Assembly: GCA_016209155.1 (NCBI GenBank) | Contig: JACQWU010000066.1 | Coordinates: forward strand, 1 to 9,586 | DNA: 9,586 nucleotides | Source: Candidatus Desantisiibacteriota bacterium | GTDB lineage: Bacteria > JACRDZ01 | Reading direction: 5' to 3' | Shown here: positions 2-9,586 of the stretch, piece after piece | Layout of the letters: each line of letters starts with the position of its first letter | Numbering within the stretch: position 1 is the stretch's first letter | The notes under the pieces: model-generated | Seen by the model: the letters and a program-made list of their open reading frames with translations, nothing else | Told to the model about the DNA's origin: nothing | Database searches by the model: none | Translations under genes and position numbers: made by a program

Positions 2-967
2 CTTGATATTGTAAAACAAGAACTAAAAAATATATCTTTAATGGATGCATCATTAAAAGAACATCTTACCATATGTGAAAATACAATTATAGAGCTTAAG
101 GAAGTCGGGATTAGTATTTTAAGATATCATGATTCAATAGAATTCAGCAATGAATTGCAGGTTACAATTGAAGAAAGAATTTCAGCAATTCAATCAATAA
201 AAAAAAAATACGGGAATACAGTATCAGAAATCTTATTGTACAGAGAAAATATTCAAAAAGAGCTGGACGAACTTAATAATATAGAGGAAAATTTCAATGA
301 TTTTATTGAGCAATTAGAAAAACTAAAAAAGGAGATTATTTTAAAATCTCAAAATTTATCTGAAAAAAGAAAAGAATCAGCTAAATTATTTAATACTAAA
401 GTTGAAAAAGAGCTAAAAGATCTTGGTATGGAAAAAAGTAAATTTATTGCAAACCTGCAAAAAGAAGAGATTACAGGAAGCGATGGAATAGCTATAGAAA
501 ATAATTATTTCAGACTTTTCCCCTGGGGTATGGATAAAGTAGAATTTCTTATTTCCCCCAATCCCGGAGAAGAGATAAAACCTCTTTCTAAAATCGCCTC
601 CGGCGGAGAGATATCAAGAATCATGCTCGCATTAAAAACAATATGTACTCATGAAGACAAAGCCGCCACCATTGTTTTTGATGAAATAGATGTCGGAGTT
701 GGAGGAGAAATGGCAAACAAAATCGGGAAAAAGCTTCAGGCTATATCCTCAAAATTTCAGGTAATATGTATAACACATCTACCCCAAATAGCATGCCTTG
801 CAGATCACCACTTCAATATTTATAAGAAAATAAAAGACGGACGCACAGTCACCGAACTCAATCAACTGGATACAAAATCACGTATTCAGGAAATTGCGCG
901 GATGATTTCAGGAGATAAAATAACCGATTTGACATTAAAGCATGCGCAGGAATTAATTATGAAATAA
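2..967 (+). CDS. recN: DNA repair ATPase RecN, C-terminal part (5' end outside window)
   Basis: RecN is an SMC-like cytoplasmic ATPase that acts in recombinational repair of DNA double-strand breaks. The frame is open to the left edge, so the ATG at position 41 is internal, and 321 residues are visible of a family usually about 550 long. Counting from base 2, residues 1-130 are the end of the long coiled coil, including the RKYG-like segment KKKYG that RecN proteins share. The C-terminal ATPase lobe follows. It has the ABC signature within KIASGGEISRIMLAL (SGGE at 200-203), the Walker B motif IVFDEID (224-230, D227 and E228), and the switch histidine in THLPQIA (H259). RIQEIARMISG near the end is also typical of RecN. 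The Walker A lobe must lie upstream of the window. The tex gene starts 10 bp downstream and its ribosome binding site overlaps the recN stop codon. The family call is firm. Confidence 0.96.
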   Translation, partial: LDIVKQELKNISLMDASLKEHLTICENTIIELKEVGISILRYHDSIEFSNELQVTIEERISAIQSIKKKYGNTVSEILLYRENIQKELDELNNIEENFNDFIEQLEKLKKEIILKSQNLSEKRKESAKLFNTKVEKELKDLGMEKSKFIANLQKEEITGSDGIAIENNYFRLFPWGMDKVEFLISPNPGEEIKPLSKIASGGEISRIMLALKTICTHEDKAATIVFDEIDVGVGGEMANKIGKKLQAISSKFQVICITHLPQIACLADHHFNIYKKIKDGRTVTELNQLDTKSRIQEIARMISGDKITDLTLKHAQELIMK

Positions 968-3236: not shown

Positions 3237-5927
3237 CTATTTCATATATTCCAAAATCTTTGGTGAAAGTTTATGATACATTTCAGTAAATTTCATTCCT
3301 ATATTTTTAACTAAAAATCTATCTCTAAAATCTGTTAATGTTTTTATATAATTTGGATTATTAATAATCGTTGCTATAATACATATTTTTTTCTTACTGC
3401 TATCACTACTGTCAGCTTTTAATACACCGCTTTGTGTAACCGTAAATGTTTTATCTGCTATTGTTATTGTACCTGTTCGTGTACTTGAACTTGAATTTGA
3501 TAAAATTGAATATTTTATAATACCGTTTCCTTGACCGCTTGCTCCAGATGTAATTATTATCCATGAATCGTTACTTTTAGCCGACCAATAAGCCGCACTC
3601 GAAACAATATCTATTTCCCCTGTTCCTCCTGAAACCGGAAATGATTTATCTTGCGGAGATATAGTAATATTCATGTTTGCAATAATTCCGGTACCATTTA
3701 ATGCAACTTCAACCGTTGCTAAGCCCGGATCATTAGATGGAATAATTATCTTTGCGCTTTTTACACCTTCTGATATCGGGATAAATACAATTTCCATGGA
3801 CTTATTCTTATATGGAGAAAGCGATTGATTTGAACAACTGTCATATTTAATACTGAATTCAGTTGAGTTTGCACCTATTATCGAGATTGCTCCGATATTA
3901 AGATTAGATGTTCCGGTGTTTGTTATTGTAAGAGTTTGTGCTGATGATGCTATCCCTGTTATTGTCATATCAAAATTGATAGCTGTTGGAGATACAGATA
4001 TATCAGGATTACTATTTTTTGCTGCATATTTTAAATTACCGTTACTTAAATCAAAATAGCTAATATATATATTGTTATTTGTATCAATGGCTATGGATGT
4101 ATACATTCCAACATTGCCCTCACTATCAATTGTACTTGTAACCCATGCCCCTGAAGTATTTGTTGCATATTTTAAATCGCTGTTACTGTCATCAAAATAA
4201 CTAATATGTGCTTTATTGTTTGTATCTATGATTAAGGATGTGTACCTGCCTATATAATCCACGCTATCTACTGTAGTTGTAATCCATGAGCCTGAGACAT
4301 TTGTTGCATATTTCAGCCCATTTTTAGAAGCATCATAGCTAATATGGGCATTATTGTTTGTATCAATGGCCAGTGATGTAAATGCCCCTGAGTAATCATT
4401 TGTGCTATCCACTGTTTTTGTAATCCATTTGCCTGAAATATTGGCCGCATATTTCAACTTCCCATTGCCATAATCTTGATAGCTGATATGCACCTTATTG
4501 TTTCTATCTATTGCTATAGATGTATACCATCCAACCTTGCCATCACTATCTACTATAGTTGTAACCCATGCACCGGAAGCATTTGTTGCATATTTTAAAG
4601 CCGGGAAAGGAGAATTATTAGTACTGCCTTCAGATAAATAGCTAATATGTACCTTATTATTGGCACCAATAGCTAAGGATGAATATTGTCCAACATAGCC
4701 CTCATTATCTGCTGTTGTTGTAACCCATACACCTGAAGCATTTGTTGCATATTTTAAATCACTGTTGTCATAATCAAAATAACTGATATGCACTTTGTTA
4801 TTTATATCTATTGCTATAGATGTTTGCCATCCAATATTACCTGTACTATCAACTGTTGTTGTAATCCATATACCTGAAATATTTGTTGCATATTTTAAAT
4901 CTTTGTTACTTCTGTCATAATAGCTAATATGTATCTTGTTATTTGCATCTATAGCTATGGAGGCAAACTCTCCCGTAATATCTGATCTATCCAATATAGT
5001 TATAACCCATACATCTGAAACATTAGCCGCATATTTTAAATTATAATTGTTAGCATCAAAATAGCTAATATGTACTTTATTGTTTGTATCTATTGCTATA
5101 GATGTATAAGACACGTTATGTCCTATATTATCCACTATAGTTGTAACCCATTTGCCGGAAGAATTTGTCGCATATTTTAAGCCGTTGTTCAAATCAATAT
5201 AGCTAATATATACATTATTTTGATTATCTATGGCTATTGATGTATCGGATCCTGCATTCCCTTCACTATCTATTGTAGTTATAACCCATGCACCGGTAGA
5301 ATTTGTTGCATATTTTAAACTTGTGAAACCGATCCCTGTGGTAAAACAGGAATAACTAATATGTATATTGTTTTTGCTATCTATAGCTATGGATGTTTCA
5401 AGTCCTGTATTATTCAAACTATCAACGGTTGTTGTAATCCATGTACCGGAAGCATTTGTTGCATATTTCAAATCAAAATTACTCCAATCAAAATAGCTGA
5501 TATGTACATTATTATTTGTATCTATAGCTATGGATGTTTCAAGCCCTACAGCTCCTATGTTATCTACAGTCTCTATTACCCATGAACCTGAAGCATTTGT
5601 TGCATATTTATTGCTCTCGTCATAATAGCTAATATGTACCTTATTATTTGTATCTATAACTATGGATGCATATTTTCCAACACCTCTTGAATTATCAGCA
5701 ACTTCATATTGCCATTTTGTACCATCAAAATAAGCATGATAGAGATGTTTACTTCCATAAGCAATATGGGGATAATTATTTTTATCAATCGCTATTGCTC
5801 TGGAATTTAAATCTGTAAAATATTTAGTTGAAATATCGATTGCTTCTGTTGTCCATATTTCACTTGCCTGAGATTTATTCAAACAAATTAAAAAGCACAA
5901 AAAAACAAAAATACTTTTTCTAAACAT
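3237..5927 (-). CDS. Exported repeat (beta-propeller-like) protein with HYDIN-like, BACON-like and degenerate CFI-box C-terminal domains
   Basis: I do not recognise a named gene; the function is unknown. The ATG at 5927 is preferred because AAGGAGG lies 7 bases upstream and it opens a clear signal peptide (hydrophobic core FVFLCFLICL, likely cleavage after SQA at 21). An in-frame TTG at 6002 would put 25 residues before it. Of 896 residues, 22-72 form a divergent repeat. Residues 73-640 hold twelve repeats of 44-53 residues, most exactly 47, built around SIAIDTNNKVHISYFD, LKYATNASG and a closing W. This pattern suggests propeller blades, which is an inference. Residues 641-749 resemble ASPM-SPD-2-Hydin / choice-of-anchor-D domains (ISVSPTAINF, LTITNTGTSNLNI, SNDPG, LNGTG). 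Residues 750-834 resemble a BACON domain (NDSWIIITSG, GTITIADKTFTVTQSG). Residues 845-896 match the CFI-box C-terminal region, with ICIIAT for CFIATA, then FRDRFL (867-872) and YHKLSP (884-889). No membrane helix follows. It is likely secreted or surface-associated, perhaps binding a polymer. Confidence 0.85.
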   Translation of the reverse strand: MFRKSIFVFLCFLICLNKSQASEIWTTEAIDISTKYFTDLNSRAIAIDKNNYPHIAYGSKHLYHAYFDGTKWQYEVADNSRGVGKYASIVIDTNNKVHISYYDESNKYATNASGSWVIETVDNIGAVGLETSIAIDTNNNVHISYFDWSNFDLKYATNASGTWITTTVDSLNNTGLETSIAIDSKNNIHISYSCFTTGIGFTSLKYATNSTGAWVITTIDSEGNAGSDTSIAIDNQNNVYISYIDLNNGLKYATNSSGKWVTTIVDNIGHNVSYTSIAIDTNNKVHISYFDANNYNLKYAANVSDVWVITILDRSDITGEFASIAIDANNKIHISYYDRSNKDLKYATNISGIWITTTVDSTGNIGWQTSIAIDINNKVHISYFDYDNSDLKYATNASGVWVTTTADNEGYVGQYSSLAIGANNKVHISYLSEGSTNNSPFPALKYATNASGAWVTTIVDSDGKVGWYTSIAIDRNNKVHISYQDYGNGKLKYAANISGKWITKTVDSTNDYSGAFTSLAIDTNNNAHISYDASKNGLKYATNVSGSWITTTVDSVDYIGRYTSLIIDTNNKAHISYFDDSNSDLKYATNTSGAWVTSTIDSEGNVGMYTSIAIDTNNNIYISYFDLSNGNLKYAAKNSNPDISVSPTAINFDMTITGIASSAQTLTITNTGTSNLNIGAISIIGANSTEFSIKYDSCSNQSLSPYKNKSMEIVFIPISEGVKSAKIIIPSNDPGLATVEVALNGTGIIANMNITISPQDKSFPVSGGTGEIDIVSSAAYWSAKSNDSWIIITSGASGQGNGIIKYSILSNSSSSTRTGTITIADKTFTVTQSGVLKADSSDSSKKKICIIATIINNPNYIKTLTDFRDRFLVKNIGMKFTEMYHKLSPKILEYMK
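4008..5711 (-). repeat. Twelve tandem repeats of about 141 bp inside the exported repeat protein
   Basis: The repeats code for residues 73-640. Unit lengths in residues are 44, 47, 51, 46, 47, 47, 47, 53, 47, 47, 47 and 45. Similarity is visible in the DNA as well as the protein: on the plus strand, blocks such as ATAGCTAATATGTAC, followed by a variant of TTATTATTTGTATCTAT, recur once per unit, which indicates growth by tandem duplication. Units 3 and 8 are longer because they carry extra residues at the same place, between HISY and LKYA. One more, diverged unit lies just before the array at residues 30-72 (AIAIDKNNYPHIAY). Confidence 0.9.
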
Positions 5928-7786: not shown

Positions 7787-9586
7787 TTAATCTTCTTTAA
7801 ATTCTTTTACTTTTTTCGCGATAGCTTCTTCTAATTCCTTTTTTTTGCTTTCTGCTTCGTCTAATTTACCGCGAAATTCCACAAGCTTATCTTCAGAGGA
7901 TGAAAGTGAATTTAGCCATTTCACTCTGAGTTCCTGCTCTTTTGGCGTATTATAATTTAATCTGCTGATATTGTCACGGAGTCTATTTTCTTCATCATTT
8001 AAACGTTTTGCCTGTTCCTGCCATTCGGTAATTTGCCGTTTTATTGAGGCTTTGGTTGACATCAAATTGCTCAATTCTTTTAAAAATATTTTGGAATTTT
8101 CTGATATATATTGTTCCGATAAATAAAAATTAATAGTTTCTTCATTACTGCTTGCTAAAATTACTGTTTCATCAAGATTGCGTTTTTCTTCAACAACAAA
8201 ATCATGTATTTCGCCTGCCTTCAAAATTACTTCAAAACGGTAATGATTATCAACTTCCTTCAATGGTTTTTCCGGTTTACTAAGTTGATATAAATTATTC
8301 TTAGGCTGGTTAATCCAAAGAGTAACAGATTCTTTTCCGCGATTAGTGAGTTTCCATGTGGTTTTTAATATTTCAAAACTGGTTAGAATTAGTATCCCGT
8401 CAACAATTTTACCTTTAAAATGAGGCATTCTATTTGAAACAATTTGAGGTACAATGTCAAGCGAAACATCAATCGCGTAAGGAATTACTTCCTGACTGCC
8501 CGGCGGTAATGTATGTACTAAGATTCCTTCTCCCAGGGAAGTATTGCTTTCAAAAAATGTTATAGCGCCGGCATCCAGGGTTAAATCAGTATCATTTTTT
8601 AAAACATATGAGTTCATTGGTTTTTGAGAAAAAGCCTCTTTATAATATAATACTCTTTTCCCTGAAATCTGTTTTAATAAAATAGGTACCATAGCCGCTT
8701 TATTGCGCGGTATTGTTATTTTTTCTTTAACATCATAGCTGAATAATTCTCCGACTTTTACGCCGATTGTTTCCGGCGGGGTACTGCCTGAAATCATTTC
8801 TCCTGAATAATCCATTTTATTTTCTGCTTCTGCCAATAAATTTTGATCCATAACCTGAGCTGCATCTGCAAAGGAACTTTTTCTTTTTAATAGACCTCTT
8901 CCTTCTGTTATTTTTTTAACTTCAGGTAAAGGTGTTTTTGCGGGTAAAGATGATCCCCAATTTACCGGTAAATCTGATAATCCCGGTATGGGAACAGTCT
9001 GCCGCTCAATATAAAATGGAGAATACATATCCATTGAATATGAAAGCGGATTGCCGGCTACAAAGGAGATATTAATATTTTCCCAATCTTCTTCAGTAAT
9101 ATTTTCTGCTTGAGCCCAGCCCTGCAAAAGCGCGTTTTCTTTCTCTTTAGAATCAAGAATTAACCGGTAAGAACATTTCCAGACAGGCATTTCAACAAGA
9201 TAACCGATTCTTAAATTTCTCTCTCCTTCTCCTACGGCTGTAAGAGTTAATTGCTTACGGTTTGTATATTTACTGTCAAGGGTGATATCAAGAAGTTTAT
9301 TTAAATCACGTTTTATAGTATCATCAGCCAAAGTAAATTCAACAATAGAAGAAATATTAACCGAACGTATCGGCCCTGAATCAGTCAATAATACAAGACG
9401 AGCATCCTGTTTTATCAACTGTCCGTTTACAATCTCATTAACCGGCTCTATCCCGAGAATGCGGCCTTCCAAAATTTCCCCCGAAGATTTTATTGAAATT
9501 TTAGCCCCTTTTAATTGAACAAAAAACTGACTCAACGCTGATTGTTCAGGAACGTTTATTAAAATATCCTGTAATCTTTTTGAAAG
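7787..9586 (-). CDS. DUF4139 / mucoidy-inhibitor-A-like protein, 5' end outside window
   Basis: This is a DUF4139-type protein, a family of mostly exported proteins of unknown biochemical role. The frame stays open to the right edge, so the gene is cut. The only in-frame start candidate near the edge is a TTG at 9535, inside the conserved stretch LSQFFVQLKGAKISIK, which argues that it is internal. Of 599 visible residues, about 18-85 are the end of the N-terminal beta-rich part. The DUF4139 region runs from about 110 to 485, with GYLVEMPVWKCSYRLIL near 128-144, WENINISFVAGNP and YVLKNDTDLTLDAGAITFF. The last 94 residues (506-599) are highly charged and predicted coiled coil (KRLNDEENRLRDNISRL, ESKKKELEEAIAKKVKEF). 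A signal peptide is expected upstream but cannot be seen. Its stop lies 78 bp before the preferred murJ start. A link to the envelope is inferred from the family and from murJ. Confidence 0.82.
   Translation of the reverse strand, partial: LSKRLQDILINVPEQSALSQFFVQLKGAKISIKSSGEILEGRILGIEPVNEIVNGQLIKQDARLVLLTDSGPIRSVNISSIVEFTLADDTIKRDLNKLLDITLDSKYTNRKQLTLTAVGEGERNLRIGYLVEMPVWKCSYRLILDSKEKENALLQGWAQAENITEEDWENINISFVAGNPLSYSMDMYSPFYIERQTVPIPGLSDLPVNWGSSLPAKTPLPEVKKITEGRGLLKRKSSFADAAQVMDQNLLAEAENKMDYSGEMISGSTPPETIGVKVGELFSYDVKEKITIPRNKAAMVPILLKQISGKRVLYYKEAFSQKPMNSYVLKNDTDLTLDAGAITFFESNTSLGEGILVHTLPPGSQEVIPYAIDVSLDIVPQIVSNRMPHFKGKIVDGILILTSFEILKTTWKLTNRGKESVTLWINQPKNNLYQLSKPEKPLKEVDNHYRFEVILKAGEIHDFVVEEKRNLDETVILASSNEETINFYLSEQYISENSKIFLKELSNLMSTKASIKRQITEWQEQAKRLNDEENRLRDNISRLNYNTPKEQELRVKWLNSLSSSEDKLVEFRGKLDEAESKKKELEEAIAKKVKEFKED

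What the first reader, a model, noticed from the sequence alone, without database searches (positions are those of the whole stretch)
3237..5927. Exported 12-13-repeat protein fused to HYDIN-like, BACON-like and CFI-box regions
The sequence shows a signal peptide, one diverged and twelve clear repeats, two Ig-like beta domains and a CFI-box tail in one 896-residue chain. Each part resembles something known, but I do not know this exact combination as a described system. The repeat motif (D-x-N-N-x-x-H-I-S-Y, then LKYATN, then W) recalls the Asp-box of sialidase-type propellers without matching it. Twelve or thirteen blades could form two six- or seven-bladed propellers. A surface adhesin or polymer-binding protein is the natural guess.
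Basis: partly seen in the sequence, partly recalled or inferred. Interest (0 to 1): 0.6.

Follow-up and report, generated by a model that had tools for sequence, protein, structure and literature searches.

The report
Exported double-propeller protein with shared tail
This gene encodes an exported bacterial protein built from two disc-shaped beta-propellers, two small Ig-like domains and a short C-terminal tail that about twenty exported proteins of the same genome share, so it is probably a cell-surface binding protein carried outward by a common address tag.

Summary
The gene is on the minus strand (5927 to 3240, stop 3237): signal peptide, 13 repeats of 44-53 residues, a choice-of-anchor-D (HYDIN-like) domain, a BACON domain and a CFI-box-like tail. 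A predicted structure shows four-stranded blades. The best-supported split is six plus seven blades: the second unit matches complete seven-bladed lectins (Z about 30), and a 14-repeat relative folded as a control gives two seven-bladed propellers. Most relatives carry 7-8 or 14-15 repeats. The repeat lacks the Asp-box motif. Elsewhere the same propeller ends in other known secretion or surface modules (T9SS type A, anammox S-layer C-terminus). The more unusual part is the tail. Twenty tails in this 79%-complete genome, on subtilase, papain, M6, kelch, cadherin and propeller proteins, form one family derived from the CFI-box: invariant Cys, Asp and Tyr, and 42-62 residues from Cys to stop. CFI-box tails sampled from other genomes run 70-78 or about 95-120 residues, the longer ones usually with a membrane helix. 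No T9SS type A tail was found here, but type II secretion genes are present. Best reading: a T2SS-exported, tag-sorted glycan- or polymer-binding surface protein. Fold and tail family are computed; binding and sorting are inferred.

The parts
3237..5927 (-). Whole gene, 896 aa, ATG at 5927, stop at 3237-3239
5865..5927 (-). Signal peptide, residues 1-21 (MFRKSIFVFLCFLICLNKSQA|SE)
   Evidence: Hydrophobicity heuristic; helix 5-12 in the model
4992..5864 (-). First propeller, residues about 22-312: N-terminal strand (WTTEAID) plus repeats 1-6, repeat 1 diverged
   Evidence: by analogy with the control relative. Lowest confidence at residues 280-320
4008..4991 (-). Second propeller, residues about 313-640: repeats 7-13, seven blades
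   Evidence: 6gxr Z 31.1, model 320..668
3723..4013 (-). Choice-of-anchor-D (ASH/HYDIN-like Ig) domain, residues 639-735
   Evidence: 61.6 bits against cut-off 45
3432..3590 (-). BACON domain, residues 780-832
   Evidence: 27.8 bits against cut-off 25
3240..3395 (-). Short CFI-box-derived C-terminal tail, residues 845-896 (KKKICIIATI...FRDRFL...YHKLSP...)
   Evidence: (E 5.8e-19 with the genome's own tail profile, which includes this row)

Best explanation
It is a Sec-exported surface or extracellular binding protein. Two propellers made of amplified, diverged blades (most likely six plus seven) form a multivalent binding head, probably for glycans or another repetitive polymer. The choice-of-anchor-D and BACON domains act as spacers. 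The last 50 or so residues are a C-terminal sorting tag, shared with about 20 exported proteins of this genome, that routes the cargo across or onto the outer membrane, most plausibly through the type II system. Shown by computation: repeats, fold class, domain identities, tail family and its position at the C-terminus. Inferred: ligand, location, sorting function, route.
For: Repeats and domains. Propeller fold, with the second unit matching complete seven-bladed PLL-type lectins; the 14-repeat relative L079 gives two separate seven-bladed propellers, mean pLDDT 85.7. Untruncated repeat arrays (n = 49) cluster at 7-8 (28) and 14-15 (8). Relatives join the same propeller to other export or surface modules: T9SS type A tails in L058, L093 and L096, anammox S-layer C-terminus in L078 and L085, choice_anch_U in L084. 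Twenty tails in the genome, at the extreme C-terminus in the cases inspected, on S8, C1 and M6 peptidases, kelch/PKD, cadherin and propeller proteins; of the twelve proteins checked, those whose annotated start looks intact have a strongly hydrophobic N-terminus. GspD (516 bits against 351) and GspK pass their cut-offs, and GspH/I/J-like genes and GspE pieces are present; no T9SS type A tail was found.
Against: No ligand evidence. Several of the closest structural matches are enzymes (glycoside hydrolases BT3686/BACINT_00347, lyases, CylK), so catalysis is not excluded. The first propeller has only six repeats and its last part is modelled with low confidence. No paper on the CFI-box was found in the held library, so sorting is an analogy, and no processing enzyme was identified. 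Residues 640-896 were not usefully modelled.
Confidence: 0.55

Rival explanations
1. The propellers are an enzyme, for example a polysaccharide lyase or glycoside hydrolase of the BNR_4/BT3686-like kind, secreted with the same tail.
For: Structural matches at 15-18% identity to glycoside hydrolases 5mum, 5muk, 5mvh and the putative neuraminidase 4irt, and to PL25 and L-rhamnose-glucuronate lyases. Two members of the relatives alignment hit BNR_4 (best E 3e-12). Known enzymes in the genome carry the tail.
Against: Blades are alike (median identity 0.57) and the window protein itself has no BNR_4 hit. Enzymes usually carry non-repeated catalytic residues; none were mapped here.
Confidence: 0.15
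2. The propellers are a protein-protein scaffold of a surface layer or pilus-like assembly rather than a glycan binder.
For: Relatives L078 and L085 end in an S-layer glycoprotein C-terminus; integrin alpha propellers also match.
Against: No partner is encoded next to it: neighbours are murJ, a DUF4139 gene and tex.
Confidence: 0.2
3. The tail is not a sorting signal but a small structural cap, or a decayed remnant of the CFI-box with no function.
For: It lacks the CFIATAAYGS core and the distal part of the domain.
Against: Nineteen aligned copies keep Cys, Asp and Tyr invariant and Ile nearly so, with a common RDxYL...YYKISP pattern, at 27-54% identity to the window tail, all short (42-62 residues) and on unrelated domains; decay would not be expected to keep one pattern.
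Confidence: 0.2

Closest known systems
PLL/PHL/BP39L seven-bladed propeller lectins (Photorhabdus, Burkholderia)
   Same: Seven four-stranded blades; best Foldseek and high VIA matches
   Different: About 7-15% identity, no sequence hit; here two propellers in one chain with Ig-like domains and a tail; sugar binding untested
WRAP and other amplified propellers (PMC9218822, PMC6805158)
   Same: Blade amplification; a 14-blade array folding as two seven-bladed propellers
   Different: WRAP blades are near-identical; blades here have median identity 0.57 and a HISY...KYATN...W pattern
BNR_4 (PF15892) and SBBP (PF06739) propeller families
   Same: Two members each of the relatives alignment match
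   Different: The window protein matches neither
CFI_box_CTERM (NF041770)
   Same: C-terminal position, Cys-x-Ile start, FRDxYL, YYKxSP
   Different: Below cut-off, AYGS lost, 42-62 residues instead of 70-120, no membrane helix
MYXO-CTERM and GlyGly-CTERM sorting tags (PMC11980579, PMC3237569)
   Same: One C-terminal tag on many unrelated exported proteins; invariant Cys in MYXO-CTERM
   Different: No membrane helix here; no processing enzyme identified

Membership tests
Beta-propeller fold | Repeated four-stranded blades | tested here: met
Beta-propeller fold | Closed ring | tested here: inconclusive
   Second unit aligns over whole seven-bladed chains and both units of the relative do; the six-repeat first unit was not resolved separately
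Asp-box propellers | SxDxGxTW motif in blades | tested here: not met
   0 matches; 11 copies of an NxSGxW-type motif at the strand 3-4 turn
PLL-type lectins | Seven-bladed lectin fold | tested here: met
   Second unit only, 6gxr Z 31.1, 8q82 Z 30.0
PLL-type lectins | Sequence similarity | tested here: inconclusive
   phmmer against PDB sequences found nothing
PLL-type lectins | Sugar binding | not testable with these tools
   Needs a binding assay
choice_anch_D (NF012200) | Score over the curated cut-off | tested here: met
   61.6 against 45
BACON (PF13004) | Score over the gathering cut-off | tested here: met
   27.8 against 25
HYDIN/ASH Pfam families (PF22544, PF15780) | Score over the gathering cut-off | tested here: not met
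   14.3 against 25.5; 20.6 against 27
CFI_box_CTERM (NF041770) | Score over the curated cut-off | tested here: not met
   26.9 against 40; four other tails of the genome do pass
CFI_box_CTERM (NF041770) | Match through the end of the 69-position model | tested here: not met
   1-52 or 1-54 here, 1-66..69 in most other genomes
T9SS type A sorting domain (TIGR04183) | Family match | tested here: not met
   No match in the protein or in the genome as held
MYXO-CTERM | Membrane helix after the Cys | tested here: not met
   Highest 19-residue mean hydropathy in the tail 0.64

The most novel reading that the evidence does not exclude
The genome uses a new, soluble C-terminal sorting tag evolved from the CFI-box by loss of its distal part, which acts as a general export or surface-display address for at least 20 proteins through an outer-membrane route other than T9SS, with the invariant Cys as a possible attachment site.
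Probability: 0.3. Interest if true: 0.6.

Novelty: new variant of a known kind. Interest (0 to 1): 0.42.

Why it matters
C-terminal tags reveal how bacteria choose which proteins to put on their surface. Here one short tag sits on about 20 unrelated exported proteins, peptidases included, in a genome without detected T9SS type A tails, so a single reporter experiment could test whether the little-studied CFI-box is a sorting signal and which part of it is needed. The propeller family is widespread in uncultured bacteria and archaea, no Pfam or NCBIfam model covers it over its length, and it is a readable case of propellers growing by units of about seven blades.

Tried and rejected
Phage or viral origin: the viral-contig scan gave no relative. 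Known solved homologue: none by phmmer; the profile found only the PknD sensor domain at E 1.3e-4 and weak cell-surface chains. RCC1_2, EipB_like, CUB, Yos9 and similar Pfam hits rest on short stretches or weak scores and were not taken as real. Asp-box membership: rejected. T9SS type A cargo: rejected for this genome on the evidence held. Single 13-bladed ring: not supported, because confidence drops at 280-320 and the second unit alone matches whole seven-bladed chains. Searches for the repeat motif and for 'CFI-box' in papers found nothing relevant. A first pass measuring tail lengths read minus-strand loci in the wrong orientation and was replaced. Promoter and terminator scans found no more than shuffles.

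Full report
WHAT IS THERE. The gene lies on the minus strand, ATG at 5927, stop at 3237-3239, 896 residues. It begins with a hydrophobic signal peptide. Thirteen repeats of 44-53 residues start at residues 46 to 613, and the DNA shows a 141-bp tandem period over 4018-5537. The first repeat is diverged from the rest but is well kept between species: it matches the first blade of relatives at 0.57-0.77, against about 0.3-0.4 with other blades. After the repeats come a choice-of-anchor-D domain and a BACON domain, both over their curated cut-offs, and a CFI-box-like tail below its cut-off. Neighbours are recN and tex on the plus strand and a DUF4139 gene and murJ on the minus strand; none suggests a partner. 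The stop codon lies within 7 bases of the end of tex, so the two genes converge.

FOLD. AlphaFold2 with 15 sequences gives a regular four-stranded meander, with most ten-residue blocks from 41 to 640 at 65-94 pLDDT, a dip at 270-320 and no useful model after 640. Foldseek ranks a seven-bladed Photorhabdus lectin first by E-value; VIA-align 2 places model residues 320-668 on BP39L at Z 31.1 (319 residues, 2.8 A) and on PLL lectins at Z 28-30. As a control I folded L079, a relative with 14 repeats: mean pLDDT 85.7, confidence dip at 346-349, and matches to whole propellers on residues 14-348 and 346-677 separately. So 14 repeats make 7 + 7. By the same reading the window protein, with 13, is 6 + 7, with the short unit first.

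BLADE NUMBERS. With an iterated repeat profile, 49 arrays not cut by contig ends had 7 (13), 8 (15), 14 (5) or 15 (3) repeats in 36 cases; the two arrays of 13 are both in this genome. Some of the 8s and 15s include an extra N-terminal hit that looks like the closing half-blade rather than a full blade; this was not checked case by case. The counts come from relatives found by two searches, so they are not a random sample. PMC9218822 describes a 14-blade array folding into two seven-bladed propellers, which is a precedent.

RELATIVES AND MODULARITY. Relatives occur in Nitrospirota, Planctomycetota including anammox lineages, Elusimicrobia, Omnitrophica, Chloroflexota and several archaea. None was found in viral contigs. 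Some end in T9SS type A domains (L058, L093, L096) or an anammox S-layer C-terminus (L078, L085), or carry choice_anch_U (L084). In this genome two paralogues carry the same head: C327 with PKD/cadherin-like linkers and the same tail, and C320, whose reading frame is interrupted between head and tail. Blades of the window protein do not in general match the C327 paralogue blade by blade, except the first and last repeats, which suggests that blades have been reshuffled or homogenised since duplication.

THE TAIL. A profile of the genome's own tails finds 20 copies. Nineteen were aligned: Cys, Asp and Tyr are invariant and Ile nearly so. Their owners include an S8 subtilase with kelch and PKD domains, a papain-family protease, an M6 protease, a PD40/TolB-like propeller, FN3/FG-GAP proteins and cadherin-like proteins. 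In a search of 290 genomes, 22 had a match at E 1e-7 or better. Lengths from Cys to stop were 42-62 in this genome (20 tails), against 70-78 and about 95-120 elsewhere, with a few longer fused or read-on frames; the longer class usually has a strongly hydrophobic stretch. Comparison tails elsewhere were those for which loci were held, not every match. The same-phylum genome G002 has long forms; two other same-phylum genomes have none. The shortened form is therefore specific to this genome among those sampled, but the phylum is represented by only four genomes.

HOW IT MAY WORK. The chain is exported by Sec (inferred from the signal peptide), folds, and is moved over the outer membrane. A type II system is a plausible route: GspD and GspK pass their cut-offs, and GspH/I/J-like genes and GspE pieces are present. 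No T9SS type A tail was found, but the genome is 79% complete and T9SS machinery genes were not searched. MYXO-CTERM, where a tag with an invariant Cys is thought to direct T2SS cargo to the surface (PMC11980579), is the model I borrow; the tail here has no membrane helix, so if it works similarly it must do so differently. Binding to glycans is suggested only by fold resemblance to lectins; the same fold is shared by glycoside hydrolases, lyases and integrins.

VERDICT. The propeller part is a new member of a known fold class; the tail is a new variant of a named C-terminal domain for which I found no functional paper. I score interest 0.42.

Noticed in passing
L012 4471-6552 and 6741-7898 (G000:C320): The paralogous head and its PKD-plus-tail part lie in different frames with a stop between them: a disrupted gene or an assembly error.
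   Followed up: partly
L182 2123-2944 and 2806-3480 (G000:C321): The GspE gene next to GspD is also split in two overlapping frames, which may point to frameshift errors in this assembly.
   Followed up: no
L012 8450-11248: Next to the C320 paralogue lies another tail-bearing exported protein with LVIVD-like repeats and PKD-like domains (read by eye, not scanned).
   Followed up: no
L152-L181 loci (G116, G253, G096 and others): CFI-box tails elsewhere fall into a 70-78 residue class, mostly without a strong membrane helix, and a longer class usually with one; G116 has nine tails.
   Followed up: partly
L014 1-933 and 1059-3197: RCC1-like and YD-repeat (Rhs-like) ORFs, named by eye, sit just upstream of a small choice-of-anchor-D-like protein with the same tail.
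   Followed up: no
window 7787-9586: DUF4139/MuiA-like protein (just below the Pfam cut-off) running off the contig end, on the same strand as murJ and the propeller gene.
   Followed up: no
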